49,313 nucleotides of DNA from Acidobacteria bacterium RIFCSPLOWO2_12_FULL_67_14b. GTDB taxonomy: Bacteria; Acidobacteriota; Vicinamibacteria; Vicinamibacterales; UBA2999. The notes under the pieces were generated by a model. That model had not been told where the DNA came from. It saw only the letters and a list, made by a program, of their open reading frames with translations, and did not search any database. Made by a program: the position numbers and the translations under genes. Positions 22,928 to 42,651 of the stretch are shown piece by piece (position 1 is the stretch's first letter; the number at the start of each line of letters is the position of its first letter). The DNA lies in the NCBI GenBank assembly GCA_001768615.1, contig MELE01000092.1:1-49313 (forward strand), read 5' to 3'.

Positions 22928-25243
22928 TCAGAATCGGAACAACCGCGTCATCTTGACGACGAACGCGCGGTTCTTCAGGGCGATGCGGCCGCGGCTCGGC
23001 TCCAGCGGATGCGTGTCCTGCTCGTCGGTCCACACCACGAAGAACTCGCTGCCGGGCCGGTACTCCCAGCGGAAGCGGACGTTGCTGCTGAAGGTGCGGT
23101 CCGCCGAGCTGTACTGCAGCAGCGCGCTGGCGAACATCCGCGGCGAAAAGGCGTAGTCGCTGCGCACGCCGAACTGCTTCGTCGTGAAGGCACCGGACGG
23201 CAGCTCGATGCGGTTGAGCGTGACCCGCGGCTCCACCGACAGCTGCTTGAGGATCGAGAAGCGGCCCTGCGAGAACGTCAGCCCCGTGATGGTGCCGTCG
23301 TAGTACTCGCCCAGCTGCAGCCCGACATTGCCCGAGAGCCGCCGCTGCTGCCCCATGTTGTACGAGAGGCTTACGTCGTTGTAGTGATAGCCGCCCGAGG
23401 GTACGATCGCGCCCGCCGCCGGCGAGAACGGCACGACCAGCAGGTCGTAGTTGGCATTGGCCTCGATGTTGAGGACGTCGCTGTTGTCGAGCTCGACGTT
23501 GAAGCGGCCGGTCTGCTGGCGCGACTCGACCGCGCCGGCGCCGTTCTCGTAGTACTCGAACAGCCCCTCGAACGTGAACTTGCGCACGCGGCGCATCGAC
23601 CGCGGCCGCGGGCTGAATCGCGCCGACGCGAACGAGCGCGTGAAGTCCGTGCGCCGCAGGAAGCCCACCTCCGGATTGAAGTCCTTCCCTACCTTCAGGA
23701 CCTCGGCGCGCACGCCGTAGCGGTCCGGCACCCAGTCGAACTTGCCCTGGAAGCTCTCGGCATCGCCGCCAAGGCCGGTGGTCTCAGTGCGCGCGTAATA
23801 GCCGCCGAGGCTGACGTTCTGGTAGAAACCGAATGCCGCATCCACCCCGTACGCCTGGTTCGACCCGCCCGCCGTCAGGCTCGACTGGTTACGATTGGTG
23901 AACATCGCGCCGATGGTGCTGCGCCGCAAGATGTCCCGCTTGGCGCGCACCACGGTGAAGTTGGTGCCCGGCGTGGCCGACACCGACTCATCGCCGGCCT
24001 GGATGTTCATCACGCCGATGCCGTAGCGGCCGAGCTTGCCGGTGAGCCGGCCGCCGACGTCGATCGGCACGACCCGGCCGCGGTTGAGGCCGATGCGCCG
24101 GCTGTAGAACAGGTAGGGCTGGTCGCTGGACCCGCCGAACCCGCCGGGGCCGCCGCCGCCCCCCGCACCCGCGCCGCCCCTGGCGAAATCGAACAGGCCC
24201 CGGCCCTCGAGGAAGAACTCGCGCTTCTCGGGCAGGAACAGGTTGAAGCGCGTCAGGTTGACCTGCTGTTCGTCGATCTCGACCTGGGCGAAGTCGGTGT
24301 TCACCGTCAGGTCCGCAGTGAGGTTGGCGGTAACACCGTACTTGAAGTCGCCGCCGACGTCGCCGTCGCGATCGTTCGAGGTCGCCGGCTGCTGCAGCCG
24401 GTCGGTGGTCATCTTGCCGAGGGCGTACGACTTGATCTCGATGTTGCGCCCCGCCGGCGGCAGGTCGAGGCCCACCACGGTGCCGTACGACGACACACGA
24501 TTGAGCGCCATCGGGCCCTGCATGTTCTGCGGCACCGGCGTCCAGTAGGTCCACTCGTTCTTGTGACGGATCGACCGGCGGAACTGGATGCCCCACACCT
24601 GGCCGGGCCCGGAGGTGTAGCGCAGCGACTTGAACGGGATCGCCATCTCCACCGTCCAGCCGCCCTCGAACCGGCCGGTGCGCGAGCTCCACACCGGGTT
24701 CCAATCGCTGTTCGGCTGCCCTTCGTCGACGATTGAGTAGTCGGAGAAGCCGCCGATCGGATTGGCGTAGAACATGAACCCGCTGCGGCGATCGTAAAAG
24801 GTGTCGAACCCGACCCCGAAGTGGTCGTTGTTGCGCATCTGGTTGGTGTCGCGGCGCATTTCGTTGGCGATCCACTTGCCGGGCTCGGCCGCATCCCAGC
24901 ACCGGGCCGCGACGTAGATGTAGTCGCCGTCGAACATCACCCAGATCTCGGTCTTCTCGGACGAGGGCTGGCCGTAGCGGGGTGCGATCTGCAGCATGCC
25001 GCCAAAACCCGGCGCGGTCTTGTAGACCGCCTCGTCCAGTGCTCCATCGAGGCGCAGCGGCTCGGCCAGCTTGATGGCGCGGAGCGTCGACTTGCCGTCG
25101 GCGTCGCGCGCCATCTCGCCCGGAGTCGGGGGCGGCGGCGGGCCGTCAATGACCTGCGAAGCCGCAGGCCCGGAGGCCTGCGGTGCGGCGAAGACGGCGG
25201 GAGTCGAGAGGAAAAGGAGGAAGAAACCTAACAGGACACGCAC
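22928..25243 (-). CDS. DUF5916 / CBM9-like outer-membrane protein at the end of the triad array
   Basis: 771 residues from GTG. Signal peptide (FFLLFLSTPAVFAA), Pro-rich linker (PPPPPTPGE), CBM9-like module (LRLDGALDEAVYKTA; MAIPFKSLRYTSG), then the DUF5916 barrel with VNTDFAQVEID and RFNLFLPEKREFFLEG. A glycine-rich loop (GGAGAGGGGGPGGFGG) precedes YSRRIGL. It ends TRLFRF, an outer-membrane-type C-terminal aromatic. The first 16 bases overlap the end of the ankyrin gene, across the codons of its CxxC tail, so translation is probably coupled. Context suggests it is the outer-membrane partner of the upstream DUF1592/DUF1552/ankyrin system. Confidence 0.87.
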   Translation of the reverse strand: MRVLLGFFLLFLSTPAVFAAPQASGPAASQVIDGPPPPPTPGEMARDADGKSTLRAIKLAEPLRLDGALDEAVYKTAPGFGGMLQIAPRYGQPSSEKTEIWVMFDGDYIYVAARCWDAAEPGKWIANEMRRDTNQMRNNDHFGVGFDTFYDRRSGFMFYANPIGGFSDYSIVDEGQPNSDWNPVWSSRTGRFEGGWTVEMAIPFKSLRYTSGPGQVWGIQFRRSIRHKNEWTYWTPVPQNMQGPMALNRVSSYGTVVGLDLPPAGRNIEIKSYALGKMTTDRLQQPATSNDRDGDVGGDFKYGVTANLTADLTVNTDFAQVEIDEQQVNLTRFNLFLPEKREFFLEGRGLFDFARGGAGAGGGGGPGGFGGSSDQPYLFYSRRIGLNRGRVVPIDVGGRLTGKLGRYGIGVMNIQAGDESVSATPGTNFTVVRAKRDILRRSTIGAMFTNRNQSSLTAGGSNQAYGVDAAFGFYQNVSLGGYYARTETTGLGGDAESFQGKFDWVPDRYGVRAEVLKVGKDFNPEVGFLRRTDFTRSFASARFSPRPRSMRRVRKFTFEGLFEYYENGAGAVESRQQTGRFNVELDNSDVLNIEANANYDLLVVPFSPAAGAIVPSGGYHYNDVSLSYNMGQQRRLSGNVGLQLGEYYDGTITGLTFSQGRFSILKQLSVEPRVTLNRIELPSGAFTTKQFGVRSDYAFSPRMFASALLQYSSADRTFSSNVRFRWEYRPGSEFFVVWTDEQDTHPLEPSRGRIALKNRAFVVKMTRLFRF

Positions 25244-27039: not shown

Positions 27040-27054
27040 ATCGCCTCGTCACTC

Positions 27055-27080
27055 GGGCGGGTCTAAAGACCCGCCCCTAC
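27055..27080 (-). repeat. GTAG-headed palindrome, triad 1
   Basis: On the minus strand: GTAG, then GGGCGGGTCT, TT, AGACCCGCCC, a perfect 10-bp stem. It lies between the DUF1552 stop and the ankyrin gene 1 start region, that is, upstream of DUF1552 gene 1 stop on the map and 16 bases past the ankyrin ATG. The same slot in the other two triads also holds a palindrome with different stem sequence. Confidence 0.75.
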
Positions 27081-27107: not shown

Positions 27108-28514
27108 TCAGTCGGCCGCGACCGTCGTGGCCGGCACGGTATTGAGATCGAATGCGCTCGTGCTGTCGCCGAACGACGTGAAGTCGTCCATGCCCAGCAG
27201 GTGCGTCAGCGACAGCATCACGTTGGCCATCGGCGTGCCGTCGGCCGCCCTGAGGTGCCGGCCGCCCTTGAGCGCGCCGCCGGCGTGGCCGGCGAGGAAC
27301 AGCGGGCAGCGCTTGTGGTTGTGCACGTTCGAGTTGCCCATCGGCGATCCGTAGACCACCAGCGTGTTCTCGAGCAGGTTGCTCTCCCCATCAGGCGTGT
27401 CCTTCAGCTTCGACAGGAAGTAGGGAATCATGCTGATGTGGTACTTGTTGATCTTCGCGAAGTCGGTGATGCGCTCGTCGCGATCCTGGTGGTGCGACGC
27501 CGAGTGGAACGCCGCCTTGTAGCCGCTGTCGGGATAGACGCGGTTCGACGCATCGCGGCCCAGCTTGAACGCAAACACGCGGGTCGTGTCCGACGCAAAC
27601 GCCAGCGCCTGCAGGTCGAACATCAGCTTCACGTGCTGCTCGAATGAATCGGGCACGCCGACCGGCGCGCCGGGCAGCTCGCGCTGCTCGCCGGTGCGGT
27701 TGACCGCCTCGACCTGCTGGATGCGGCGCTCGATCTCGCGCACGTCTTCGAGGTAGTCGGCCAGGCGCGCGCGATCGGCCGCGCCCAGGTTCTTGTTGAG
27801 GCGCGCCACCGCGGTGCCGAGCCAGTCGAGGATGCTCTTGTCTTCGCTGCGCCGTTCCTGCCGCTCCGCCGGCGTGGCGCCGACGCCGAACAGCTGGTCG
27901 AATACCGTCCGCGGGTCGCGGATCATCGGCAGCGGCTGGTTCGGCGCTGCCCAGCTGATCGAGTCGGTGTACGTGCACGAGTAGCCGTAGGAGCAGCCGC
28001 CCGCCTGGTCGACGTTCTCGATGCACAATTGCATCGACGGTATCGCCGTCGTCTGGCCGTGCCGCTGCGCGTAGTACTGGTCGAGCGACGTGCCGACGTG
28101 CACGTCCGAGCCCTGGGTCTGCTTCGGGTGCATCTGCGTCAGGAACACCGCGCTCGAGCGGAAGTGATCGCCGCCGATTTCCGGCGCCGTAAAGGCTTCG
28201 GCGTTCCGCACGTCGGTGTTGCTGACGATGGTGATGTCGTTGCGGAAGGGCTCGAGCGGCGCGAGGCTGCTCGGCGTGAGGTCGAAGTCACGCCCCACCG
28301 CCGCCGGCGCCCACATGTTCTTCTTGATGCCGAACGCCGTGCTGCCGGCGGAGCCGTGCACCATCTCGATGGCGGCGAAGCGAATCTTGCCGCGGGCGGC
28401 CTGCGCGTGCGCGGCGCGCGCCGGCACCATCGCCTCGAGGAACGGCAGCGCCATGGTGACGCCGACGCCCTTGAGCACGGTGCGGCGGGAAATGTGCTTC
28501 TGCGTGATGTACAT
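27108..28514 (-). CDS. DUF1552 (HxxSHH) Tat-exported protein 1
   Basis: 468 residues of the HxxSHH/DUF1552 family. The N-terminus has a twin-arginine signal (ISRRTVLKGVGVTMALP). The family motif is visible as HSASHH near residue 335. Also seen are FAAIEMVHGSAGSTAFG, NTDVRNAEAF and VVYGSPMGNSNVHNHKRCPLFLAG. These proteins are distantly like the alkaline-phosphatase-type DUF1501 group; the reaction is unknown. They are almost always next to DUF1592 cytochromes, as here. The start is ATG 28514 after AGGAGAG, which overlaps the DUF1592 stop codon (TAGGAGAG), so the pair is co-translated. Confidence 0.9.
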   Translation of the reverse strand: MYITQKHISRRTVLKGVGVTMALPFLEAMVPARAAHAQAARGKIRFAAIEMVHGSAGSTAFGIKKNMWAPAAVGRDFDLTPSSLAPLEPFRNDITIVSNTDVRNAEAFTAPEIGGDHFRSSAVFLTQMHPKQTQGSDVHVGTSLDQYYAQRHGQTTAIPSMQLCIENVDQAGGCSYGYSCTYTDSISWAAPNQPLPMIRDPRTVFDQLFGVGATPAERQERRSEDKSILDWLGTAVARLNKNLGAADRARLADYLEDVREIERRIQQVEAVNRTGEQRELPGAPVGVPDSFEQHVKLMFDLQALAFASDTTRVFAFKLGRDASNRVYPDSGYKAAFHSASHHQDRDERITDFAKINKYHISMIPYFLSKLKDTPDGESNLLENTLVVYGSPMGNSNVHNHKRCPLFLAGHAGGALKGGRHLRAADGTPMANVMLSLTHLLGMDDFTSFGDSTSAFDLNTVPATTVAAD

Positions 28515-28522: not shown

Positions 28523-31042
28523 CTAGCGCTTGTCGGCTTCCGCCGCACGCCGTTCCTTACTGGTTTCGACCAGGCCCATCCTGAAGCCGGGGCTGTTGAC
28601 CACTCCGAGCACGAACGCCGACATCTTGTTGCCGCGCTTGCCGGCGTCGCGCACCACACCGCGAATCGCCGGCATGTCGGTGTGTTCCACCCGACGGCCG
28701 AGCGCGTAGGTCATGAGGCTCTCGGTGAAGCCGGTGAGGAACACGTCCGAGTGCTTCAGCAGCGCCTGGCGCAGGCCCGCGGGGCCGTCCATCCGCGTGC
28801 CGTCGTAGAGATCGCCGACCACGTCGACCGGCACCTCGTTGTCCTTGATCCGCCACGCCCCGGTGACGTCGAAGTTCTCGAGCGCGAGGCCCAGCGGATC
28901 GATCACCCTGTGGCACGACGTGCACGACGGGTTCTTGCGGTGCTCTTCCATGCGCTCGCGGGTCGACAGCATCTTGCCGCCCTCGTTGGCCTTGACCGAA
29001 TCATCCAGCGAGGGCACGTTCGGCGGCGGCGGCGGCGGCGGCGACGCCAGCAGCACCTCCATCACCCATTTCCCGCGCTGCACCGGCGAGGTCCGATCGG
29101 CCACGGAGGTCAGCGTCAGGATGCTGCCCTGCCCCAGCAGCCCGCGGCGATACGCCGGCAGCGTGACGCGCTGGAACGCGCTGCCGCTCACGTTGGGGAT
29201 GTGGTAGTGCTTGGCCAGCCGCTCGTTCACGAACGAGTAGTCGGCCGTCAGCAGGTCGGTCACGCTGCGGTCTTCGCGGACGATGCTGTCGAAGAAGAGC
29301 TCGGTTTCGCGCTTCATCGCCTGCGCGAGCGTGTCGTCGTACTGCGGATAGAGCAGGTAGTCGGGGAAGATCTTGTCGAGGTCCTGCAGCCGCAGCCACT
29401 GCGATCCGAACCGGGTGGCCAGGGCTTCCGATCGCTTGTCGGCCAGCATGCGGCGGACCTGCTTCTCGACGCCGGCGGGCGTCTTCAGCAAGCCGACGGC
29501 CGCGGCCTTCACCAGCTCGGCGTCGGGCACGGTGCCCCACAGGAAGAACGACAGGCGCGACGCGATGTCTTCGTCGGCAATCCGGTAGGTCGTCGACGAC
29601 GCGCGGACGACGGCGGGTTGTTGCTCGAGACGGAAGAGGAAACGCGGGCTCATCAGGATCGACTGCACCGCCATCCGGATGCCGGGCTCGAAGCCGCCCT
29701 TCTTCCGTCCCTGCTCGTAGAAGCCGAGCGCGTCCTGCAGGTCGGCCGCCGAGGGCGCCCCGCGGAACGCCTGCGTCGACAGGCGCTTGACGATCTCGGC
29801 CGCGCAGGATTCCTCTTCGGCCGCGCTCGTCGGGCGGCAGGAGAAGACCTTCAGGCGGCTCGGCGTGTCGGAGACGCCGGTGACATCCGACGGCCCCTGC
29901 ACGGTGAAGTCGCGCAGGTGCGGCAGCATGGTGATGCCGAAGGTGATGCTGACGTCGGCCAGCGTGTTCTCGAGCGGCATCAGCAGGTCGTCGACCGGCC
30001 CGTCGAGCCGCTGCACGAAGGCCGCGGTCACGCGCTGCGGCCCGGCCTTGATGTGCACGGGCGGCGTCTGCAGGTCGAGGTTGTTCTTCGGATCGGTCTC
30101 GCTCATGCGGGTATTGAGGTCGACAATCGCCACGCGCTCGCCGTTGACCGAGAACTCCACCTGCTCGGTCAGCCCGAACGCCGTCATCGAGTTGCGGCCC
30201 ACCAGGCCGCCCAGCGGCTCGTAGTGCAGCGAGGTCTTCAGGATGTAGTGGCCGTCGGCCGGGAACGTGTGGATCACCGAGATGCCGCCGCGCGTGCCCA
30301 TCGGCGCGCCGTCGACCCGCCGCATCTGCGACGACGAGCGGGGGATCTTGTAGGTCGAGGACGTCGCGCTGGCGGAGCGATCGCCCACGGCGAGGCGGCT
30401 GATCTGGCTGGCGGCGCGGAGGTAGCCGTCCATCAGGGTCGGCGAGAAGGTCTGCGCGTCCGCCACGTTGTCGAACCCGTGGCTGATTGTGTCGGGCGGC
30501 AGGTACGCCGTCACCTCGATGTCGACGTCGAGCAGGTCCTTGACCGCGGCGGCGTACTCGGCGCGATTGAGGCGCTGGAACGGGCGCGAGCCCGGATTCG
30601 GCCTTAGCGCCGCCGCCTTGTCCATCCGCGCCTCGAAGGCGGCCGCCATCTCGGTGAGGACCGTGCCCTCGGGCCGGCGCGCGCCCGACGGCGGCATCAT
30701 GCCGGCGCGGAGCTTGCGGATCATCTTCTCGGTGACCTCGCCATGCGCCTCGACCTTCGCCGCGTCGAAGGTCGTGAACGTCAGGCCGCCGGCGCGCTCC
30801 TTGCCGCGATCGTTGTGGCAGGTGGCGCAGTACTGCTTGACCACGGCGGTCTGCTCGTCCGGCAGCATCGTCTTGACGGCCGGCGCATGTGATGCCTGTG
30901 GCGACAAACCTTTCTTGTCCGCCGAAGCGCTTGGCGCGGAGGCGGAAGGTTTGTCGGCCGCGGCCGGCGACGGCGCCTGGCCACTGCCCGCCGCCGACAT
31001 CGAGATGACGAGCGTGCCCAGCGCCCCAATCGTGAGTTTCAT
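28523..31042 (-). CDS. DUF1592-family cytochrome protein 1
   Basis: 839 residues. Signal peptide and low-complexity Ala/Ser/Pro linker, then a c-heme site CATCH near 71, DUF1587-like LNRAEYAAAVKDLL, YLPPDTISHGFDNVAD, a carbohydrate-module-like middle (HIKAGPQRVTAAFVQRLDG), DUF1595/1592 (SPRFLFRLEQ, RLSFFLWGTVPDAEL), a DUF1588 segment with a second c-heme site CTSCH near 707, and DUF1585 (GPAGLRQALLKHSDVFLTGF). Periplasmic c-type cytochrome; substrate unknown. The ATG at 31042 follows the ankyrin gene 2 stop by two bases (upstream ATGs at 31060 and 31051 are possible). It is the first gene of the triad with DUF1552 gene 1. Confidence 0.88.
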   Translation of the reverse strand: MKLTIGALGTLVISMSAAGSGQAPSPAAADKPSASAPSASADKKGLSPQASHAPAVKTMLPDEQTAVVKQYCATCHNDRGKERAGGLTFTTFDAAKVEAHGEVTEKMIRKLRAGMMPPSGARRPEGTVLTEMAAAFEARMDKAAALRPNPGSRPFQRLNRAEYAAAVKDLLDVDIEVTAYLPPDTISHGFDNVADAQTFSPTLMDGYLRAASQISRLAVGDRSASATSSTYKIPRSSSQMRRVDGAPMGTRGGISVIHTFPADGHYILKTSLHYEPLGGLVGRNSMTAFGLTEQVEFSVNGERVAIVDLNTRMSETDPKNNLDLQTPPVHIKAGPQRVTAAFVQRLDGPVDDLLMPLENTLADVSITFGITMLPHLRDFTVQGPSDVTGVSDTPSRLKVFSCRPTSAAEEESCAAEIVKRLSTQAFRGAPSAADLQDALGFYEQGRKKGGFEPGIRMAVQSILMSPRFLFRLEQQPAVVRASSTTYRIADEDIASRLSFFLWGTVPDAELVKAAAVGLLKTPAGVEKQVRRMLADKRSEALATRFGSQWLRLQDLDKIFPDYLLYPQYDDTLAQAMKRETELFFDSIVREDRSVTDLLTADYSFVNERLAKHYHIPNVSGSAFQRVTLPAYRRGLLGQGSILTLTSVADRTSPVQRGKWVMEVLLASPPPPPPPNVPSLDDSVKANEGGKMLSTRERMEEHRKNPSCTSCHRVIDPLGLALENFDVTGAWRIKDNEVPVDVVGDLYDGTRMDGPAGLRQALLKHSDVFLTGFTESLMTYALGRRVEHTDMPAIRGVVRDAGKRGNKMSAFVLGVVNSPGFRMGLVETSKERRAAEADKR
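30902..30956 (-). repeat. Inverted repeat within DUF1592 gene 1 linker
   Basis: CGACAAACCTT (30902-30912) and AAGGTTTGTCG (30946-30956) are perfect 11-bp arms around 33 bases that include CCGCCGAAGCG and GGAGGCGG. It encodes the low-complexity ADKPSAS...ADKKGLS linker after the signal peptide. The arm shares GACAAACCT with the palindrome at 1321. Confidence 0.6.
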
Positions 31043-32829: not shown

Positions 32830-32858
32830 GTAGGGCCCCCCTTAAAGGGGGGCCCTAC
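32830..32858 (-). repeat. GTAG-headed palindrome, triad 2
   Basis: GTAGGGCCCCCCTT and AAGGGGGGCCCTAC are perfect 14-bp arms around one central base, with GTAG at both ends. It lies between the DUF1552 gene 2 stop (32868) and the ankyrin gene 2 start (32808). Confidence 0.8.
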
Positions 32859-34283: not shown

Positions 34284-36830
34284 TTACCGACCCGCGGCAG
34301 CCGTCGTTTCCGCGGCGGCCACCCGACCCATCCGAAATGCGCCGCTGTTGGCGACGCCGGCAATAAACGACGAGAACCGGTAGTTGTGCCGCCCGGCGTC
34401 GCGGATGATCGCGCGCACGGCCGGCATGTCGTAGGACTCGACGCGACGGCCCAGCGCATACGTCATCAGGCTCTCGGTAAAGCTGAGCATGATCACGTCC
34501 TGGTGCGTCAGCAGCGCGCGGCGCAGCGCGGCGGGCCCATCGAGCTTGGTGCCGTCGTAGAGGTCGCCGACCGGGTCCACCGGCACGCCGTTGTCCTTGA
34601 TGCGCCACACGCCGGTGACGTCGAAATTCTCGAGCGCGAGGCCGAGCGGATCGATCACCCGGTGGCACGACGAACAGGCCGCGCTCTTGCGGTGCTCTTC
34701 CATGCGCCCGCGCGTCGATAGCAGCTTGCCGGCATCGACCGCCTTGGTCTCTTCCAGCGTCGGCACGTTGGGCGGCGGCGCCGGCGGCGGCGATCCGAGC
34801 AGCACTTCCATGACCCACTTGCCGCGCAGGACCGGCGAGGTGCGATCGGCGATCGAGGTCAGCAGCAGCACGCTGCCCTGCCCGAGCACGCCGCGCCGGT
34901 TCGGGTCCGCAATCGTGACGCGGCGGAACTCGTCGCCGAGGATGTTCGGGATGCCGTAGTGCTTGGCGAGCCGCTCGTTGACGAACGTGTGATCCGCCGT
35001 CAGCAGGTCGGTCACCGGCCGATCGGCGCGGATCAGGCTGTCGACGAAGAGCTCGGTCTCGCGGACCATCGCCCTCGAGAGCGTCGTGTCCCAGTACGAG
35101 TAAAAGTGATGATCGGGCCGGACCTTCTCGACGTCCTGCAGCCGGAGCCACTGCGAAGCAAATCGCGACGCCAGCGCTTCGGATCGCGGGTCGGCCAGCA
35201 TGCGCTTGAGCTGCCGATCGAACACCGCCGGGGTCTGCAGCGTGCCCTGGGTCGCCGCCTTCAGCAACTCGGCGTCGGGCACCGAGCCCCAGATGAAGAA
35301 CGACAGCCGCGAGGCGAGGTCGAGATCCGTGATGCGATAGGTCTGGCCGGCCTTGAGCGCGGCGGGCGTCTGCTCCAGGCGGAACAGGAAGCGCGGGCTC
35401 GCCAGGATGGCCTGCACCGCCAGGCGGATGCCGCTTTCGAAGTCGCCCGCCTCCGCTCGCGAGTTCTCCAGCGAGCTATGGCGGGGCTCCGCCGTAGCGG
35501 CCTCCGGCCGCGAAGGCGAGCCGTTCTTGCGGCCCTTCCCGTAGAACGCCAGCAGATCCTTGAGGTCGTCGGCGTGCACGGGGCCGCGATAGGCCTGCCC
35601 GGCCAGGCGTCGCACGATGGTCGACGCGCACGTCGGCTCTTCCGCGGCCGTGATCGGCCGGCAGACGAACACGCGGCGCCGGCTCTCCGTGTCGGACACC
35701 CCCGTGACCGCCACCGGCCCGGTGACGGTGAAGTCGCGTAAGTGCGTGAGCGCCGTCGTGCCGAACACCTCGCCGATGTTGGTGTCGGCGAGCGTGTGCT
35801 CGATCGGCATGATCAGGTCGTCGGCCGGGCCGTCGAACCGCTGCACGAACGCCGCGGAGACGCGCTGCTGGCCGGCCTTGATGTGGACCTTCGGCGTCTG
35901 CATGGTCAGGCCGTTCGGGTCCTGCTCGTTCATGCGCGGGTTGATGTCCATCAGCGCCACGCGCTCGCCGTTGATCGACACCTCGATCTGCTCGCCGCGA
36001 TACGGGCCGCCGAACAGGTCCCCGGTCGGGCCCATGTGCAGCATGATCTTGAAGAGGTAGTCGCCGTCGGCCGGGAACACGTGCAGCACCGACAGGCCGC
36101 CGCGGGTGCCGAGCGGCGCGCCCTCGACGTGCCGCATCTGCGACGCGGTGCGCGGCATCTTCCACGTGGTCGAGCTGGCCGAGGCGTGGCGATCGCCCAC
36201 GGCCAGGCGGCTGATCTGGCTCGCCGCGCGCAGGTAGCCTTCCATCAGCGTCGACGAAATCGTCTGCGAGTCCGCGATGTTGTCGAAGCCGTCGCTGATC
36301 GTGTCGGGCGGCAGGTAGGCCGTCACGTCGACGTCGATGGCGAGCAGATCGCGCACGGCGCGCGCGTACTCGGCGCGGTTCAGCCGCTGCGAGGGGCGCG
36401 ACCCGGGATTGGGACTGACGGCCGCGGCGCGATCGATCCGCGACTCGAACGCGTCCACCAGCGCCGCGATCGCCGCCGCCTCGGGTCGGCGGGCGCCGAC
36501 GGGCGGCATCATGCCGGCCCGCAGCTTGCGGATCATCTTTTCGGTGGTCTCGGCGTGATCGACCACCTGCGCGGCGTCAAACGCCGCGAGCGAGAGGCCG
36601 CCGGCCTTGCCGCGATCGCTGTGGCACCCGGCGCAATATTGCGTGACCAGGGCCGTCTGCTCCGCGGGCAGCATGACCGCTGGGGCATGCGATGCCACCG
36701 GTTTCGGGCTCGGAGTGGTCGGGCCCTGGCCCGCCGAAGCGGGCGCGGGCTTCGCGGCCGCCCGCGAAGGCGGCTGGGCGGCCAGCGCAACCGGGGCGCA
36801 GATGAGCACCGCGACGACGACCCGCTTCAT
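34284..36830 (-). CDS. DUF1592-family cytochrome protein 2 with a unique insert
   Basis: 848 residues. Same order as its paralogues: signal peptide, Ala/Pro linker, c-heme site CAGCH near 65, LNRAEYARAVRDLL, YLPPDTISDGFDNIAD, the middle module, SPRFLFRLEQ, RLSFFIWGSVPDAEL, a second c-heme site CSSCH near 718 and the DUF1585 tail. Between GRKNG and GDFESG it carries about 24 extra residues (SPSRPEAATAEPRHSSLENS...), absent in the other two copies and encoded by a palindromic repeat. The start ATG 36830 is preceded by GAGGGG, 11 bases after the ankyrin gene 3 stop; the longer open frame upstream is shadow sequence. Confidence 0.88.
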   Translation of the reverse strand: MKRVVVAVLICAPVALAAQPPSRAAAKPAPASAGQGPTTPSPKPVASHAPAVMLPAEQTALVTQYCAGCHSDRGKAGGLSLAAFDAAQVVDHAETTEKMIRKLRAGMMPPVGARRPEAAAIAALVDAFESRIDRAAAVSPNPGSRPSQRLNRAEYARAVRDLLAIDVDVTAYLPPDTISDGFDNIADSQTISSTLMEGYLRAASQISRLAVGDRHASASSTTWKMPRTASQMRHVEGAPLGTRGGLSVLHVFPADGDYLFKIMLHMGPTGDLFGGPYRGEQIEVSINGERVALMDINPRMNEQDPNGLTMQTPKVHIKAGQQRVSAAFVQRFDGPADDLIMPIEHTLADTNIGEVFGTTALTHLRDFTVTGPVAVTGVSDTESRRRVFVCRPITAAEEPTCASTIVRRLAGQAYRGPVHADDLKDLLAFYGKGRKNGSPSRPEAATAEPRHSSLENSRAEAGDFESGIRLAVQAILASPRFLFRLEQTPAALKAGQTYRITDLDLASRLSFFIWGSVPDAELLKAATQGTLQTPAVFDRQLKRMLADPRSEALASRFASQWLRLQDVEKVRPDHHFYSYWDTTLSRAMVRETELFVDSLIRADRPVTDLLTADHTFVNERLAKHYGIPNILGDEFRRVTIADPNRRGVLGQGSVLLLTSIADRTSPVLRGKWVMEVLLGSPPPAPPPNVPTLEETKAVDAGKLLSTRGRMEEHRKSAACSSCHRVIDPLGLALENFDVTGVWRIKDNGVPVDPVGDLYDGTKLDGPAALRRALLTHQDVIMLSFTESLMTYALGRRVESYDMPAVRAIIRDAGRHNYRFSSFIAGVANSGAFRMGRVAAAETTAAAGR
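35446..35523 (-). repeat. Palindromic element inserted in frame in DUF1592 gene 2
   Basis: Contains GCTCGC/GCGAGC arms (35455-35460, 35471-35476), GGCGGGGCTCCGCCGTAGCG and ends CCGCGAAGGCG. It corresponds to about 24 residues missing from both paralogues, and the frame is intact on both sides. The GGCGG...CCGCCGTAGCGGCCT part is shared with the element in ankyrin gene 3. Confidence 0.72.
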
Positions 36831-36841: not shown

Positions 36842-38704
36842 TCAGCACGAGACGCACTTGTGGTTGTTCTTCGAGCCGAGCTTTTCGAGCAGCTTCAACG
36901 TCTCGGGCCAGGGCTGCACGCGCTGGACCGGCCCGTTCGCCATGTCGGCCACGGTGTTGCCTTCGCGGTTCACGACGGTCACATCCGCGCCCTTCGACAC
37001 GAGATAGAGGATCGACTCGTTGTCGCCACGCGCCGCCGCATGATGCAGCGCGGTGTTGCCGTCGTGATCGCGTTGGTTCGGGTCGGCGCCGGCCACTTCG
37101 ATCAGGAACTTGATGCCGGGCAGGAAGCCTGCCGGCGAGTGGATGTGCGAGTTGGCGGCGAAGCCCTCGCCGAAGCCGACGCCGGCGGCGGCCTGCAGGG
37201 CCGGCACGCCGGGACCGCCGATCGGCAGCGGCGGCAGGTTCGCGATCTCTTTGACCTCGCGCGCGCCCGAGTCGCCCACCCGCGGCCGGCCCGCCGGCTT
37301 CATCGTCGGGATGTTCGGATCGGCGCCGAAGTCCATCAGCAGCTTCATGGCCGGCACGTCGCCGGCGAACGCGGCGCGCCAGAACGGCGTCGCGCCGATT
37401 TCGTCCACGCCCGCCAGGTCGAAGTTGTATTCGGTGTACCAGACCTTGCGCGTGAGGCGCACGTTCGGCTGCGCGCCCTTGTCGAGCAGCGCCTTCATGT
37501 AATCGAGGTAGGTCAGCTGCTGCTGCTGGAAGGCGCGCGGCTGCGGATAGAGCGCGCGCGGCGCCCACGTCACGTTGAGGGCGGCGTAGAGCGGCGTGAC
37601 GCCGTTGGCCGAGGCCGCATTCGGGTCGCCGCCCTGATCGAGCAGCCACGTCGCAAGATCGAAATGGCCGTTGATGGTGGCAATCAGGAGCGGGCTGGTC
37701 TGGTCGCCGGCGCTCACCTGGTTCACATCGGCGCCGCCCGACACGAGCAGCTTCGCGGCGTCGACGTAGCCGCCGCGCGCGGCAAACAGGAGGGGCGTGA
37801 TGCCGCCCTGCGTGCCGACGAGCTCGTTATAGAAGTAGGGGCGATCGATCCCGGCCTTGCCGCCGCCGCCGAAGCGCCCGCCGCCGCCCGGCCTGCCGCC
37901 CTGGCCCTGCCCCTGAGCGGCCGCGTCCTGGGCGCCCGGCACCACGGCCGCGGTGCCCGGGCCGTTGCGGATCTGGCCATTGCCGCCCGGCTGCCCGCCG
38001 CTGCCGGAGGCCGCGAGCACCGCGTCCTGCTCGACGCTGCTCAGGTTGCCGACGTTGTTGACCTTCGACGACAGCTTCACGGCGGCGCCCGCCTTCAGCA
38101 ACGCGGCGACCGCGTCGACGCGGTTGGTGCCGGCCGCGAACATCAGCGCCGTCTGCCCCATCGACGTTTCCTTGGCGTCGACCTCGGCGCCGTTCTCGAC
38201 GAGCATCGTCACCGACCTGGCGTCGCCGGACAGCGCCGCGAGCATCAGCGGGGTCGTGCCCGTCGCGTTGGCGGCCTTGACGTCCGCCCCCGCCGCCAGC
38301 AGCGCCGCGATCACCGCCGCGTGTCCCTGTTCGGCGGCCATCATCAACGGCGTGTACGCGCCCAGGCGCGTCGTCGCCTTCACGTTGGCCCCGGCGTAGA
38401 GCAGCATCTGCGCGAGGTCGACGTCACCGCCGCGCGCCGCCCAGTGGAGCGCCGTCATGCCGTCGCCCTGCGCGGCGTTGACGTCGGCGCCGCCTTTCAG
38501 CAACGTGCGGACGGCGTCCTTGTCGCGCCTGGCGGCCGCCGCCGCGACCGGGAATTTCTCGGTCGCTCTGGCGGGCCCCGCCGTAGCGGCCTGGGCCTCC
38601 ACGCCGCGCAGGCGGGCGTCGGCGACCTGGGCCGGCCCCGCGGCCGTCACCAGCACCGGCAACACGACGGCGAACACGCCGCCCGCGATCGTCACTCTTC
38701 CCAT
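36842..38704 (-). CDS. Exported ankyrin-repeat protein 3 with HKCxxC tail
   Basis: 620 residues. Signal peptide (MGRVTIAGGVFAVVLPVLVTAAG), ankyrin repeats (TALHWAARGGDVDLAQMLLYAG, TPLMLAALSGDARSVTMLVENG and others), a long Gly/Gln linker (GQGGRPGGGGRFGGGGKAG) and PFWRAAFAGDVPAMKLLMDFG. It ends KNNHKCVSC-stop. Start 38704 has AGGGGC upstream. The N-terminal segment VADARLRGVEAQAATAGPARATE is again encoded by palindromic repeat sequence. First ankyrin gene transcribed in the array. Confidence 0.88.
   Translation of the reverse strand: MGRVTIAGGVFAVVLPVLVTAAGPAQVADARLRGVEAQAATAGPARATEKFPVAAAAARRDKDAVRTLLKGGADVNAAQGDGMTALHWAARGGDVDLAQMLLYAGANVKATTRLGAYTPLMMAAEQGHAAVIAALLAAGADVKAANATGTTPLMLAALSGDARSVTMLVENGAEVDAKETSMGQTALMFAAGTNRVDAVAALLKAGAAVKLSSKVNNVGNLSSVEQDAVLAASGSGGQPGGNGQIRNGPGTAAVVPGAQDAAAQGQGQGGRPGGGGRFGGGGKAGIDRPYFYNELVGTQGGITPLLFAARGGYVDAAKLLVSGGADVNQVSAGDQTSPLLIATINGHFDLATWLLDQGGDPNAASANGVTPLYAALNVTWAPRALYPQPRAFQQQQLTYLDYMKALLDKGAQPNVRLTRKVWYTEYNFDLAGVDEIGATPFWRAAFAGDVPAMKLLMDFGADPNIPTMKPAGRPRVGDSGAREVKEIANLPPLPIGGPGVPALQAAAGVGFGEGFAANSHIHSPAGFLPGIKFLIEVAGADPNQRDHDGNTALHHAAARGDNESILYLVSKGADVTVVNREGNTVADMANGPVQRVQPWPETLKLLEKLGSKNNHKCVSC
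38569..38617 (-). repeat. GC-rich palindromic element inside ankyrin gene 3
   Basis: GGCGGGCCCCGCCGTAGCGG, followed by CCTGGGCCTCC and GCCGCGCAGGCGGGCG. The core GGCGGG-CCCGCC is an inverted repeat. Related to the element at 35.48 kb and placed like those in ankyrin genes 1 and 2, immediately after the signal peptide. Confidence 0.55.
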
Positions 38705-38726
38705 ATCTGCCCCTGTCGCGATCAAC

Positions 38727-38750
38727 CGCGGACCTGAAGGTCCGCGCTAC
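38727..38750 (-). repeat. GTAG-headed palindrome, triad 3
   Basis: Minus strand: GTAG, CGCGGACCT, TC, AGGTCCGCG; perfect 9-bp stem with a CTTCAG centre. It lies between the DUF1552 gene 3 stop (38770) and the ankyrin gene 3 start (38704), the same slot as in triads 1 and 2. Confidence 0.75.
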
Positions 38751-38769
38751 ACCGCACTACCGGTAACCG

Positions 38770-40167
38770 TTATTCCGCCACCGTGGACGCCGGCACGGTC
38801 TTCAGCTCGAAGCGGCCCGTGCTGTCGCCGAAGCTCGTCATGTCGGTGACGCCGATGTCGTTCAGCAGCGACAGCATGACGTTGGCCATCGGCGTGCCGT
38901 CGGCCGCCTTCAGGTGCAGGTTGCCCCGGAGCGCCCCGCCCGCCTTGCCGGCCAGGAACAGCGGGCACCGCTTGTGGTTGTGCACGTTCGAGTTGCCCAT
39001 CGGCGACCCGTAGACGACCAGCGTGTTGTCGAGCAGGGTGCCGTCGCCATCGGGCGTCGCCTTCAGCTTGCCGAGGAAGTACGGAATCATGCTCACGTGG
39101 TAGCGGTTGATCTTCATGAAATCGGTGACGCGATCCTCGCGCTCGCCGTGGTGCGAGGCGGGGTGGAAGGCGCTGCGGACGCCGCTCTCGGGATAGACGC
39201 GCGCCGAGCCGTCGCGGCCCATCTTGAACGAGAAGACGCGGGTCACGTCCGAGGCAAACGCCAGCACCTGCAGGTCGAGCATCAGCTTGACGTGCTCGTC
39301 GAATGAATCGGGCACGCCGATCGGCGCTTCGGGCAGTTCGCGCGCCTCGCCGGTGGCGTTGTGGGCTTCGACGCGCTGGATGCGGCGCTCGACCTCACGG
39401 ACCTCTTCGAGATACGCGCCGAGGCGCCGGCGGTCGTCGGCGCCCAGGTCCTTCTGCAGCCGCGCCACCTCGCCGGTCACCCAGTCGAGGATGCTCTTGT
39501 CGGTCTGGCGATGCGCGGCGCGCTCGGCCGGCGTCGAGCCGACGCCGAAGAGCGAGTCGAAGGCGGCGCGCGGGTCGCGGATCATCGGCAGCGGCTGCGT
39601 CGGCGACGCCCAGCTGATGCTGTCGGTGTAGGCGCAGCTGTAGCCGTAGGCGCAGCCGCCGGCCTGATCCACCGTCTCGATGCTCAACTGCATCGACGGA
39701 ATGGCGGTGTCCTGCCCGAACCGCTGCGCGTAGATCTGATCGAGCGAGGTGCCGGCGTGCACGTCGGACCCCTGCGTCTTCTTGGGATGCGACTGCGTCA
39801 GGAACACGGCGCTCGACCGGAAGTGGTCGGCGCCGATTTCCGGCAGCGAGAACGCCTCGGCGTTCCGCACGTCGGTGTTGCTGACCACGGTCAGGTAGTC
39901 GCGGAAGGGCTCGAGCGGCGACAGCGCGCCCGGGCTGAGGTCGAACGCGGTGCCCACTGCGGCCGGCGACCACATGTTCTTCGACAGGCCGAACACCGTG
40001 GCGCCAGCCGATCCGTGCACCATTTCGATAGCCGACAGCCGGACCTTGCGCGCGGCGGCCGCCCGGGCAAAGGCCGGCGTCATCGCCTCGAGGAACGGCA
40101 GCGCCACCGTGACGCCGAGGCCGCGCAGGACCATGCGGCGGGAAACGTGCTTCTTCGTGATCATCAT
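38770..40167 (-). CDS. DUF1552 (HxxSHH) Tat-exported protein 3
   Basis: 465 residues. Twin-arginine signal VSRRMVLRGLGVTVALP; HPASHH near 332; LSAIEMVHGSAGATVFG, SNTDVRNAEAF, VVYGSPMGNSNVHNHKRCPLFLAG. The C-terminal half is the most conserved part among the three copies by eye. The start is a double ATG at 40167/40164, 12 bases after the DUF1592 gene 3 stop, with GGAG upstream. Confidence 0.9.
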   Translation of the reverse strand: MMITKKHVSRRMVLRGLGVTVALPFLEAMTPAFARAAAARKVRLSAIEMVHGSAGATVFGLSKNMWSPAAVGTAFDLSPGALSPLEPFRDYLTVVSNTDVRNAEAFSLPEIGADHFRSSAVFLTQSHPKKTQGSDVHAGTSLDQIYAQRFGQDTAIPSMQLSIETVDQAGGCAYGYSCAYTDSISWASPTQPLPMIRDPRAAFDSLFGVGSTPAERAAHRQTDKSILDWVTGEVARLQKDLGADDRRRLGAYLEEVREVERRIQRVEAHNATGEARELPEAPIGVPDSFDEHVKLMLDLQVLAFASDVTRVFSFKMGRDGSARVYPESGVRSAFHPASHHGEREDRVTDFMKINRYHVSMIPYFLGKLKATPDGDGTLLDNTLVVYGSPMGNSNVHNHKRCPLFLAGKAGGALRGNLHLKAADGTPMANVMLSLLNDIGVTDMTSFGDSTGRFELKTVPASTVAE

Positions 40168-40179
40168 CGCGCCTGTCTC

Positions 40180-42651
40180 CTATCGTTCAACCGTCGTCTC
40201 AACCGCTTCCGCCCGGCTCATCTGGAACGCCGGGCTCGTGACCACGCCCATCACGAATGCCGAGAAGCGGTTGTGGCTCCTCGCCGCGTCGCGCATGATC
40301 GCGCGAATCGCGGGCATGTCGTAGGACTCCACTCGCCGGCCCACCGCGTAGGTCATCAGCCGTTCCGTGAAGCTCAGGATGAAGGCGTCCTGGTGCTTGA
40401 GCAGCGCCGCGCGCAGCCCGGCCGGCCCGGCCATCTTCGTGCCGTCGTAGAGGTCGCCCGCCGAATCCACCGGCGCGCCGTTGTCGCGAATGCGCCAGCG
40501 GCCGGTGACGTCGAAGTTCTCGAGCGTGAGGCCCAGCGGATCGATCACGCGGTGGCACGACGTGCACTGCGGATTGGCCCGGTGCTGCTCCATGCGCTGG
40601 CGCGTCGTCAGCTGGCGGTCGCCCGATTCGATCTTGGTCTCGTCGAGCAACGGCACATTGGGCGGCGGCGCCGGCGGCGGCGAGCCGAGCAGCACTTCCA
40701 TGATCCACTTGCCGCGCAGCACGGGCGAGGTGCGGTCCGCCACCGAGGTGAGCGCGAGCACGCTGCCGTGGCCGAGCAGCCCGCGGCGGTTGTCGTCGGC
40801 CAGGGTGACGCGCTGGAACTCGTAGCCGTTGATGTTGGGAATGCCGTAGTGCTTCGCCACGCGCTCGTTGACGAACGTGTAGTCGGCCGTCAGCAGGTCG
40901 AGGATGCCGCGGTCTTCCTTGACGATGCTGTGGAAGAAGAGCTCGGTTTCGGTCCTGAGCGCGTCCGACAGATGGTGGTCGTAGTACGGGAAGAGCAACG
41001 CGTCGGGATGGATCTTCTCGAGGTCCTGCAGGCGCAGCCACTGCGACGCGAAACGCGTGGCCAGCGCTTCCGACTTCGGATCCGCGAGCATGCGCTTGAC
41101 CTGCGCGGCCAGCACCGTGGGCGTCTTCAGCGTGCCCTGGCCCGCGACCTTCACCAGCTCGGCGTCGGGGCCGGTGCCCCAGAGGAAGAACGACAGGCGC
41201 GAGGCCAGATCGCGGTCGGCGATGCGGTAGTTCTGGCCGGGCCGGGCCGTGGCCGGCGGATGCTCGAGACGGAACAGGAAACGCGGGCTGGCCAGGATCG
41301 CCTGCAGCGCCATGCGGATGCCCGATTCGAAGTCACCGCCGTCCTTGCGCCCCTCGGCGAAGAACTGCTGAAGACCCTCGACGTCCTGAGCGCTGAGCGG
41401 GCCGCGGTACGCCTGCGTCGCCAGGCGGCGGATGATCTCGGACGCGCACGCCGCCTCGTCGGCCGCCGAGGTCGGGCGGCAGGTGAAGATCTTGCGGCGG
41501 CTCGGCGTGTCGGAGACGCCGGTCACCTTGAACGGCCCGCCGATCGCAAACTCGCGCAGGTGCGGCAGCGTCGTGATCCCGAAGCCCGCGCCGATCTGGG
41601 TGTCGGCCAGCGTGTGATCGATCGGCGCCATCAGGTCGTCCACCGGCGCGTCGAACCGCTGGATGAACGCCGCCGAAACACGCTGCGTCCCGGCCTTGAC
41701 GTGGATCCGCGGCGTCACGATGTTCATGCCGTTGGCATCGGCCTCGCTCATCCGCGGGTTGATCTCGAGCACCGCCACGCGATCGCCGTCGATCGACACT
41801 TCGATCAGCTCGCCCCTCACGGTGCTGCCGAACAACTGGCCCGTGGGGATCGAGTGCAGCTGCATGCGGAAGCTGTATTCGCCGTCGGCCGGGAACGTGT
41901 GCATCACCGAGATGCCGCCGCGCGTGCCGAAGGGCGCGCCCTCGACGTGCCGCATCTGCGACGCGGTGCGCGGCACCTTGACGGTGACTTCGGCGGCGCC
42001 CGCCCGCGGGTCGCCGACCGCCAGGCTGGCAATGCGGCTCGCCGCGCGCAGGTAGCCTTCCATCAGGGTGGCCGAGAAGCGCTGCACGTCGGCGACGTTG
42101 TCGAACCCGGCGCTGATCGTGTCGGGCGGCAGGAAGGTCGTCACGTCGACATCGAGCGACAGCAGGCCCTGCACGGCGCGCTCGTACTCGGCGCGATTGA
42201 GCCGCTGGAACGGCCGGCGGCCAGGATTCGGGCTGAGCGCCGCGGCGCGATCGAGCCGCGTTTCCATCGACTCGGCGAACGCAATCAGGGTCGCCGCGTC
42301 GGGGCGACGGGCGCCCGGCGGCGGCATCATCCCCAGTCGCAGCTTGCGGATCATCTTCTCCGCCGTCTCGGCGGCAAGCGCGTCGGGCCCGACCTTCGCC
42401 GCATCGAAGAGGGCCAGCGTGAGGCCGCCGGCGTTGTCCTTGGTGCGATCGTTGTGACAGCCTGTGCAGTACTGCTTGACGAGCGCGGTCTGCGCCTCGG
42501 TCGCGGCGGCGGGCGCGTGCGCCACCGCCATCGCCGGAGATTTCGTGGTGGATGCCGCGGGCGTGCGAGCAGCCGGCGACTGGTCGGCGAACACACGCAG
42601 ACCGAGTCCCAACACGAGGGCAAAATGGGCAACGACCGAATGTCTCTTCAT
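40180..42651 (-). CDS. DUF1592-family cytochrome protein 3, first gene of the array
   Basis: 823 residues from ATG 42651, chosen because it yields the signal peptide MKRHSVVAHFALVLGLGLRVFA; upstream in-frame ATG codons lie in the promoter region. Domains as in its paralogues: c-heme site CTGCH near 61, LNRAEYERAVQGLL, YLPPDTIS-type region (FLPPDTISAGFDNVAD), SPRFLFRLEH, RLSFFLWGTGPDAEL, second c-heme site CTSCH near 694, DUF1585 tail. It is the promoter-proximal gene of the three-triad array and has 44 bases between its start and the candidate -10. Confidence 0.88.
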   Translation of the reverse strand: MKRHSVVAHFALVLGLGLRVFADQSPAARTPAASTTKSPAMAVAHAPAAATEAQTALVKQYCTGCHNDRTKDNAGGLTLALFDAAKVGPDALAAETAEKMIRKLRLGMMPPPGARRPDAATLIAFAESMETRLDRAAALSPNPGRRPFQRLNRAEYERAVQGLLSLDVDVTTFLPPDTISAGFDNVADVQRFSATLMEGYLRAASRIASLAVGDPRAGAAEVTVKVPRTASQMRHVEGAPFGTRGGISVMHTFPADGEYSFRMQLHSIPTGQLFGSTVRGELIEVSIDGDRVAVLEINPRMSEADANGMNIVTPRIHVKAGTQRVSAAFIQRFDAPVDDLMAPIDHTLADTQIGAGFGITTLPHLREFAIGGPFKVTGVSDTPSRRKIFTCRPTSAADEAACASEIIRRLATQAYRGPLSAQDVEGLQQFFAEGRKDGGDFESGIRMALQAILASPRFLFRLEHPPATARPGQNYRIADRDLASRLSFFLWGTGPDAELVKVAGQGTLKTPTVLAAQVKRMLADPKSEALATRFASQWLRLQDLEKIHPDALLFPYYDHHLSDALRTETELFFHSIVKEDRGILDLLTADYTFVNERVAKHYGIPNINGYEFQRVTLADDNRRGLLGHGSVLALTSVADRTSPVLRGKWIMEVLLGSPPPAPPPNVPLLDETKIESGDRQLTTRQRMEQHRANPQCTSCHRVIDPLGLTLENFDVTGRWRIRDNGAPVDSAGDLYDGTKMAGPAGLRAALLKHQDAFILSFTERLMTYAVGRRVESYDMPAIRAIMRDAARSHNRFSAFVMGVVTSPAFQMSRAEAVETTVER

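What the first reader, a model, noticed from the sequence alone, without database searches (positions are those of the whole stretch)
25228..42651. Three tandem DUF1592 - DUF1552 - ankyrin triads feeding into a DUF5916 gene
Nine consecutive minus-strand genes form the same three-gene unit three times, with each DUF1592-DUF1552 gap only 8-15 bases and ankyrin-to-DUF1592 gaps of 2-11 bases. Each unit supplies a predicted periplasmic diheme c cytochrome, a Tat-exported HxxSHH protein and an exported ankyrin protein; the last ankyrin gene overlaps a predicted outer-membrane barrel gene. DUF1592 and DUF1552 proteins are known neighbours of unknown function. Addition of a periplasmic ankyrin partner and threefold amplification suggests a redox system with paralogue-specific targets. 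Inference: the ankyrin proteins dock the cytochrome/HxxSHH pair or present its substrate.
Basis: partly seen in the sequence, partly recalled or inferred. Interest (0 to 1): 0.8.

Follow-up and report, generated by a model that had tools for sequence, protein, structure and literature searches.

The report
Cytochrome–DUF1552–ankyrin triad with cysteine tail
Three neighbouring copies of a conserved three-gene module encode a two-heme cytochrome, a protein with a sulfatase-like fold and an ankyrin protein ending in a nearly invariant pair of cysteines, which points to an unstudied three-part exported enzyme system in soil and freshwater-type bacteria.

Summary
In detail: three DUF1592–DUF1552–ankyrin units lie in tandem. 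The triad is a conserved unit: in a scan seeded on the ankyrin protein, 85 of 89 ankyrin genes with enough upstream DNA follow a DUF1592–DUF1552 pair, mainly in Acidobacteriota and Gemmatimonadota MAGs. The three copies are old paralogues. Partners stay matched: swapping them within a locus never reached the observed tree agreement (0 of 999). Tailed ankyrins accompany one DUF1552 clade whose usual Y-x-P-N-G loop reads E-x-V-H-G; none of 17 complete ankyrins beside other DUF1552 genes has the tail. DUF1552 models as a sulfatase-type fold; DUF1592 holds a jelly roll. Best reading: a three-subunit periplasmic enzyme whose ankyrin lends a dithiol arm. Complex, substrate and tail chemistry are untested. 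DUF5916 is a local neighbour, not core.

The parts
40180..42651 (-). DUF1592-family diheme cytochrome, unit 3; CxxCH at about 42454-42468 and 40552-40566
   Evidence: Pfam PSD3/PSD5/PSD4/PSCyt3/PSD2; CTGCH and CTSCH
38770..40167 (-). DUF1552 (HXXSHH), twin-arginine leader, unit 3
   Evidence: PF07586 E 8.8e-87; HPASHH
36842..38704 (-). Ankyrin protein, unit 3 (start uncertain: ATG 38704 or TTG 38725)
   Evidence: Ank E 6.4e-60; starts
36842..36865 (-). Codons of the ank3 tail NHKCVSC and stop
38727..38746 (-). Intergenic hairpin, 8-bp stem, between DUF1552 and ankyrin of unit 3
34284..36830 (-). DUF1592-family diheme cytochrome, unit 2 (ATG 36830); CxxCH at about 36621-36635 and 34662-34676
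32868..34268 (-). DUF1552, unit 2
   Evidence: PF07586 E 4.8e-86; HPASHH
31045..32808 (-). Ankyrin protein, unit 2
   Evidence: Ank E 1.9e-61
31045..31068 (-). Codons of the ank2 tail NHKCITC and stop
32830..32858 (-). Intergenic hairpin, 13-bp stem, unit 2
28523..31042 (-). DUF1592-family diheme cytochrome, unit 1 (ATG 31042 or 31051, or GTG 31060); CxxCH at about 30815-30829 and 28910-28924
   Evidence: AF2 model pLDDT 89.5, pTM 0.90
27108..28514 (-). DUF1552, unit 1
   Evidence: PF07586 E 3.7e-87; AF2 model pLDDT 82.2, pTM 0.88; sulfatase-type fold
25228..27039 (-). Ankyrin protein, unit 1
   Evidence: Ank E 2.8e-63
25228..25251 (-). Codons of the ank1 tail NHKCVSC and stop
27055..27076 (-). 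Intergenic hairpin, 9-bp stem, unit 1
22928..25243 (-). DUF5916 gene overlapping ank1 by 16 nt: a local neighbour, not part of the core unit
   Evidence: PF19313; overlap; distribution

Best explanation
The block is three old paralogous copies of one conserved module that encodes a three-subunit periplasmic enzyme system. Shown: gene order, co-inheritance, subtype and tail. Predicted: folds. Inferred: the rest. DUF1552 is a metal-dependent enzyme of sulfatase/alkaline-phosphatase fold, exported folded by Tat. DUF1592 is the electron-carrying partner, with two c-hemes and a jelly-roll domain that may hold a glycan-like ligand. The ankyrin protein is a dedicated scaffold subunit whose mostly cysteine-free body places a C-terminal CxxC arm at or near the DUF1552 active site, where the dithiol acts as a redox pair or a metal ligand and couples the chemistry there to the DUF1592 hemes.
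For: 85 of 89 ankyrin ORFs with at least 2.4 kb upstream follow DUF1592-DUF1552 in order. Partner trees agree (r 0.926, 0.900, 0.881 over 105 triads; 0 of 499 permutations), and swapping partners within a locus reached the observed value in 0 of 999 trials for each pair of families. 101 of 101 tails are CxxC within 0-3 residues of the end, 93 exactly at the end. 96 of 121 bodies have no other Cys, 11 have one, 14 have two. The tail pattern has 114 hits in 99 genomes against 8 for the reversed control; 30 of the 114 were fetched and 30 of 30 are ankyrin C-termini. Tailed partners are confined to the DUF1552 clade with E-x-V-H-G, while heme motifs are about equally kept in both types (C-terminal CxxCH 1.0 and 1.0; His of the N-terminal one 0.88 and 0.95). 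66 of 90 tail genes have no DUF1592/DUF5916 gene close behind, so an overlapping start does not explain the tail. DUF1552 fold: best Foldseek E 3.1e-6, probability 1.00.
Against: No complex was predicted or measured; co-inheritance of a cassette does not prove contact. One of the 89 ankyrins (L198) has the tail but no pair in 7.6 kb upstream, and one (L173) has no DUF1552 match before it. In one genus a pair of this type has no ankyrin of its own, though tailed ankyrins lie in the same block (L088-L090). The deepest member, L110, has NNCRSDQC and a longer end. Tail and loop change sit on one long branch, so the link may be shared ancestry. The usual-type sample is 21 rows, all from the window's order. 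In the DUF1552 model one invariant cysteine lies in, and the other next to, a segment with pLDDT under 50; active-site residues were not mapped. Fold TM-scores are modest (0.27-0.44). The jelly roll has no match at E <= 0.001; matches at E 0.003-0.07 include carbohydrate modules and BcsB but also PorU, phage fibre, viral capsid and cerebellin domains, so a glycan ligand is weakly supported.
Confidence: 0.35

Rival explanations
1. The ankyrin is a maturation partner of the cytochrome: it carries heme, or keeps the CxxCH cysteines of DUF1592 reduced, much as periplasmic ankyrins help catalases.
For: A review says ankyrin proteins interact with and promote catalases in other bacteria, with proposed roles in conformation or heme binding, citing AnkB-KatB and Cj1386-KatA (PMC10294975, passages read). 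The partner here is a diheme protein. DUF1592 has positions special to the tailed type.
Against: DUF1592 proteins paired with the other DUF1552 type keep the heme motifs about equally, but none of the 17 complete ankyrins beside such pairs has the tail.
Confidence: 0.2
2. The tail is a metal-binding handle (copper, zinc or iron) that loads or completes the metal site of the E-x-V-H-G type of DUF1552.
For: The tail and an active-site loop change that adds Glu and His occur in the same clade. CxxC pairs often bind metals (recalled).
Against: The two residues before the first cysteine vary (H, N, D or G, then K, R, N or G), so no fixed third ligand is seen. The metal content of DUF1552 is unknown.
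Confidence: 0.2
3. The tail forms intermolecular disulfides: it anchors or dimerises the ankyrin protein and has no part in catalysis.
For: In 96 of 121 ankyrins the only cysteines of the body scored are the two of the short C-terminal tail.
Against: A CxxC pair is an odd choice for anchoring (judgement); 93 of 101 tails keep both cysteines with exact spacing at the very end.
Confidence: 0.12
4. The tail is a substrate: the cytochrome/DUF1552 pair modifies it to make a peptide-borne cofactor.
For: Near-invariant end at a fixed position on a protein that otherwise diverges to 51-71% identity; partners encoded side by side. Diheme enzymes that modify partner proteins exist (MauG, recalled).
Against: No modification is known; Foldseek gave no match at E <= 0.001 for DUF1592, and those listed are mostly for a jelly roll, so likeness to such enzymes is not shown.
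Confidence: 0.08
5. The tail is conserved only because its codons overlap the start of the next gene.
For: In the window the next gene can start inside the tail codons, by 7-16 nt.
Against: 66 of 90 tail genes with at least 1.5 kb downstream are not followed by a DUF1592 or DUF5916 frame within 200 nt; other gene families were not checked there. Tail codons vary synonymously.
Confidence: 0.03

Closest known systems
PSCyt3 genes beside a family of unknown genes in freshwater Verrucomicrobia (PMC5615132; passages read; the listing counts DUF1552 three times, but the passage search found it 0 times in the main text)
   Same: PSD and PSCyt3 domains and a side-by-side partner gene; function stated to be unknown; carbohydrate-binding modules occur on some such proteins
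   Different: No ankyrin partner or tail in the passages I read
[quoted passage not shown] PMC8981238, passages read)
   Same: DUF1587 plus c-type heme domains and a carbohydrate-binding module; suggested electron donor in polysaccharide oxidation
   Different: Other domains (X158, X183, X132, CBM2, FN3); no DUF1552 or ankyrin partner in the passages read
Periplasmic ankyrin-catalase pairs (AnkB-KatB, Cj1386-KatA; cited in PMC10294975, passages read)
   Same: Ankyrin protein that works with a heme protein
   Different: Partner is catalase; no CxxC tail in the passages read; no DUF1592/DUF1552
Sulfatases, phosphonate monoester hydrolases and lipoteichoic acid synthases (alkaline phosphatase superfamily)
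   Same: Predicted fold of DUF1552
   Different: 8-13% identity in the listed Foldseek alignments; nucleophile and metal ligands of DUF1552 not mapped; twin-arginine leader and HxxSHH motif

Membership tests
DUF1592 (planctomycete-type) cytochromes | PSD3, PSD5, PSD4, PSCyt3 and PSD2 domains in order | tested here: met
   Three of three proteins over the curated cut-offs
DUF1592 (planctomycete-type) cytochromes | c-type heme motifs | tested here: met
   Two CxxCH in each of three proteins
DUF1552/HXXSHH | PF07586 match and HxxSHH motif | tested here: met
   Three of three
DUF1552/HXXSHH | Y-x-P-N-G-like loop seen in the other DUF1552 proteins sampled here (my own observation, not a published definition) | tested here: not met
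   The window copies read E-x-V-H-G; 21 rows of the other type have the usual loop or near variants
Alkaline phosphatase superfamily | Fold | tested here: met
   52 PDB matches at E <= 0.001, 50 listed; best 3.1e-6; TM-scores modest
Alkaline phosphatase superfamily | Catalytic nucleophile and binuclear metal ligands | not tested
   No coordinates or residue-level alignment to a solved enzyme available
Periplasmic catalase-partner ankyrins (AnkB/Cj1386 type) | Catalase gene next door | tested here: not met
   No catalase among the 30 window ORFs scanned with Pfam
LPMO electron-donor system (Cbp2D type) | LPMO gene nearby | tested here: not met
   None among the 30 window ORFs scanned; the rest of the genome was not searched for LPMOs
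LPMO electron-donor system (Cbp2D type) | c-type cytochrome joined to a carbohydrate-binding domain | tested here: inconclusive
   Jelly roll resembles CBM6/35 at E 0.01-0.03, and other jelly rolls about as well

The most novel reading that the evidence does not exclude
A separately encoded ankyrin subunit delivers a C-terminal dithiol into the active site of a sulfatase-fold enzyme, turning a hydrolase scaffold into a metal- or thiol-dependent oxidoreductase that passes electrons to a dedicated diheme cytochrome: a new three-component periplasmic redox enzyme.
Probability: 0.22. Interest if true: 0.85.

Novelty: new variant of a known kind. Interest (0 to 1): 0.6.

Why it matters
DUF1592/DUF1552 pairs are numerous (up to 41 first-look DUF1552 candidates in one relative genome, 20 of them scored), and the papers found give them no tested function. 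The triad gives a handle: one clade with a fixed third subunit, a defined active-site change, and a tail of four key residues that can be removed or altered. If the arm works at the active site, it would show what these proteins do, and would be a new way to build an active site from two chains.

Tried and rejected
Recent tandem amplification: rejected. The three copies fall in three separate DUF1552 groups with same-genus orthologues, and the block order is kept in same-genus genomes. G002, of the same genus, has only one DUF1552 match and one triad.

DUF5916 and the divergent molybdopterin oxidoreductase/cytochrome as core parts: rejected. They are kept in the genus, but at the clustering used no neighbour family outside the triad occurs in more than 9 of 75 loci (loci differ in length).

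Tail as a general protein tag: rejected. 30 of 30 fetched hits among relatives are ankyrin C-termini (84 of 114 hits were not fetched). In a phylum sample 25 of 297 genomes have hits. At the ten loci returned by that call the open frame at the hit is 1-88 residues and shows no ankyrin. I then took five stretches of four more genomes whose hits looked real: four ankyrin ORFs with the tail in G139, G151 and G173 (two), nothing recognised in G346. The single hit in G196 and the further hits of G131 and G143 were not looked at.

A tail-matched cysteine pair special to the tailed type of DUF1552: not found; its two invariant cysteines are shared by both types.

Hairpins as a conserved part of the unit: not convincing. 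All three window gaps have one, but perfect stems of 8 bp or more occur in 20 of 138 DUF1552-ankyrin gaps, against 2 of 138 coding controls, 10 of 176 stretches after DUF1592 and 19 of 158 after ankyrin genes.

Searches without result: solved structures by sequence (one hit at E 0.07; one at E 0.48; neither credible); NCBIfam has no name for DUF1552, DUF1592 or DUF5916 here, and for the ankyrins only hits far below cut-off. Papers: 0 hold both DUF1592 and DUF1552; 2 hold two of five related terms; 2 hold DUF1552; 9 on periplasmic ankyrins (one read in passages); on PSCyt1/DUF1501/DUF1549/DUF1553; 3 hold any of DUF1592, DUF1588, DUF1587, DUF1595, DUF1585, PF07631; 0 hold ankyrin, Vicinamibacter and cytochrome; 0 on C-terminal CXXC arms.

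Dropped rows: identical DUF1552 rows removed before counting types (178 to 153). In one search tailed rows were thinned to 70 and L077 was left out as partial. Triads with short or cut partners were left out of the tree comparison (106 kept, 105 distinct).
Full report
What is in the window. Nine minus-strand genes between 25228 and 42651 form the unit DUF1592-DUF1552-ankyrin three times, in that order of transcription. Each DUF1592 protein has the domains PSD3, PSD5, PSD4, PSCyt3, PSD2 and two CxxCH motifs; each DUF1552 protein has an HxxSHH motif and a twin-arginine leader (SRRTVLKG, SRRAVLRG, SRRMVLRG); the ankyrin proteins begin with a hydrophobic leader (leaders read by eye, no predictor was run). 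Gaps inside the DUF1592-DUF1552 pairs are 8, 15 and 12 nt.

All three ankyrin proteins end in NNHKC(V/I)(S/T)C. A DNA pattern for this end with its stop codon has 114 matches in 99 relative genomes (35 genomes have one), against 8 for the same pattern read backwards (sums made by hand from its table). Thirty of the 114 were returned as loci, and 30 of 30 are ankyrin C-termini; in one (L143) the open frame upstream is only 31 residues.

The triad is a unit. The two peptide patterns used lie inside the protein, not in the tail. In these loci I found 101 ankyrin ORFs over 300 bits. Of 89 with at least 2.4 kb upstream, 86 have DUF1552 directly upstream and 85 have DUF1592 then DUF1552. Of the four exceptions, L147 has the ankyrin ORF split in two, L195 has DUF1552 in two pieces, L173 has no DUF1552 match before that ankyrin, and L198 has no pair at all in 7.6 kb. 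Record titles name mostly Acidobacteriota (some Vicinamibacterales) and Gemmatimonadota; some say Gammaproteobacteria, but the three such rows in the tree nest among Gemmatimonadota rows, so label or transfer is open. The window is probably from an uncultured Vicinamibacterales-like acidobacterium (inference from the nearest named records).

The tail. 101 of 101 ankyrin ORFs end in CxxC with 0 (93), 1 (5), 2 (2) or 3 (1) residues after it. The two residues before the first cysteine vary; the cysteines do not. In 121 distinct triads with the tail, 96 ankyrin bodies have no other cysteine in about the last 536 residues before it, 11 have one and 14 have two. 66 of 90 tail genes with at least 1.5 kb downstream are not followed within 200 nt by DUF1592 or DUF5916.

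In the window's own genome. Seven DUF1552 and six DUF1592 genes are found. Six DUF1552 genes lie in triads: three here and one each on C54, C160 and C117, where the ankyrin is cut by the contig end. The seventh, on C22, is cut by the contig end and is followed by an ankyrin gene without the tail.

Two types of DUF1552. I compared tailed triads with DUF1552 loci chosen by DUF1552 score alone in relative genomes. In 30 such loci with 1.5 kb flanks, 28 show DUF1592 next door and 11 an ankyrin frame. I fetched longer stretches for 20 of these 30: ten of the eleven with an ankyrin already visible and ten of the other nineteen. 17 of 20 have an ankyrin gene beside the pair (7 of the 10 not visible before): downstream, upstream, between the two genes, or divergent; L224, L225 and L237 have none. 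Eight ankyrins (seven of this sample and the one on C22) were checked with Pfam and eight are ankyrin-repeat proteins; the other two proteins of that call, an esterase in L237 and one without match in L219, were downstream neighbours. So an ankyrin neighbour is common for such pairs in this order, but 0 of the 17 complete ankyrins in the sample ends in CxxC, and an eighteenth is cut by a contig end. The partner DUF1552 proteins differ in the loop after the first strand: E-x-V-H-G with the tail, Y-x-P-N-G or near variants without; further differences are F-H against H-H before the xxSHH motif and a Lys against mostly Met. In a tree of 101 rows the 21 usual-type rows are one side of a branch (support 100) and the 80 E-x-V-H-G rows the other (support 100). 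DUF1592 proteins also have positions special to the tailed type, including a His at reference position 386 (0.96 against 0), an Arg and an Asp; this is a result against placing the tail at DUF1552 alone. Ten E-x-V-H-G rows had no tail recorded: four are cut by contig ends (L076, L084, L101, L188); in L087 and L195 the tail is present but a gene is in pieces; L088, L089 and L090, all one genus, have a pair with no ankyrin of its own inside a block that has tailed ankyrins; L110, the deepest branch, has NNCRSDQC and a longer end.

Co-inheritance. For 105 distinct complete triads, patristic distances agree between families (r 0.926, 0.900, 0.881; 0 of 499 permutations each). In 22 loci with more than one triad (46 triads), exchanging partners inside the locus lowered the agreement, and 0 of 999 exchanges reached the observed value for any pair of families. 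The window copies are old: each groups with its own same-genus orthologues (60 rows). The oxidoreductase and cytochrome genes upstream of the block are present in 6 of 6 same-genus genomes whose upstream flank I fetched; in three same-family genomes (G036, G041, G017) the block has two triads and the oxidoreductase was not found in the flank fetched. G002, of the same genus, has no block.

Structures. AlphaFold2 on window DUF1552 unit 1 (87 rows): pLDDT 82.2, pTM 0.88; residues 132-142 are below 50, with one of its two invariant cysteines inside and the other at the edge. Foldseek: 52 PDB matches at E <= 0.001; 50 were listed, and where the titles name an enzyme they name sulfatases, phosphonate monoester hydrolases, lipoteichoic acid synthases or an alkaline-phosphatase-superfamily protein. 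Window DUF1592 unit 1 (82 rows): pLDDT 89.5, pTM 0.90; no PDB match at E <= 0.001. The listed matches cover mostly 130-250 columns and are largely jelly rolls: BcsB and PorU first (E 0.003-0.006), then CBM35 and CBM6 (E 0.01-0.03), but also phage fibre, viral capsid and cerebellin domains. I place this domain at about residues 175-340 of the model from its strand pattern (inference). By sequence neither family has a solved relative.

Papers. PMC5615132 (passages read): PSCyt3 genes usually sit next to a family of unknown genes, function unknown, with hints of carbohydrate use. PMC8981238 (passages read): Cbp2D carries DUF1587 and c-type heme domains; its X183 domain passes electrons to LPMOs in vitro. 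PMC6004670 (one passage): a DUF1592 protein with CBM2 in a table of proteins of a lignocellulose-degrading community. PMC10294975 (passages read): ankyrin proteins that assist catalases. PMC2754498 (passages read): a secreted DUF1552 protein in a gene table, labelled 'regulatory mechanism', and related PSD1/PSC2 domains said to suggest redox function. PMC7789669 (one passage): DUF1587, 1588, 1592 and 1595 in a table of domains to add for an anaerobically respiring Pseudomonas, from domain comparisons.

Mechanism. Shown: unit, matched partners, tail, subtype link. Predicted: folds. Inferred: complex, tail chemistry, substrate, electron path. Heme motifs are about equally conserved with and without a tail, while the DUF1552 loop changes with the tail, so I place the tail's work at DUF1552 first; the type-special His of DUF1592 keeps the other choice open. 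The link rests on one deep branch and may be common ancestry.

Verdict. A real, conserved three-gene version of a known but unexplained gene pair, with an unusually fixed C-terminal dithiol. Not found in print by the searches.

Noticed in passing
window 27055-27076, 32830-32858, 38727-38746: A perfect hairpin with a short loop lies in each of the three DUF1552-ankyrin gaps, with different sequences; stems of 8 bp or more occur in 20 of 138 such gaps overall.
   Followed up: partly
window 42792-44710 (+): Divergent molybdopterin oxidoreductase (sulfite-oxidase-like) and c-type cytochrome genes, kept beside the block in 6 of 6 same-genus genomes examined.
   Followed up: partly
window 45368-46801 (-): Gene with weak, below-cut-off matches to a cytochrome domain and to a copper monooxygenase C-terminal domain, conserved next to the block in the genus.
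   Followed up: no
window 3-1328 (-) and 19265-21448 (-): Two further DUF5916-like frames, at the window's left edge and beyond the block.
   Followed up: no
L088, L089, L090: One genus has a DUF1592-DUF1552 pair of the tailed type without its own ankyrin inside a block of triads.
   Followed up: partly
L110 7808-10801 (-): The deepest ankyrin of the tailed clade ends NNCRSDQC plus further residues instead of a terminal CxxC; possibly an earlier form of the tail.
   Followed up: partly
L226 2560-4329 (+): An ankyrin gene lying between DUF1592 and DUF1552.
   Followed up: no
L198: A tailed ankyrin gene with no DUF1592/DUF1552 pair in the 7.6 kb held upstream.
   Followed up: no
DUF1592 reference position 386 (unit 1 numbering): A His kept in DUF1592 proteins of tailed triads and absent from the other type: a second candidate site for the tail.
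   Followed up: no
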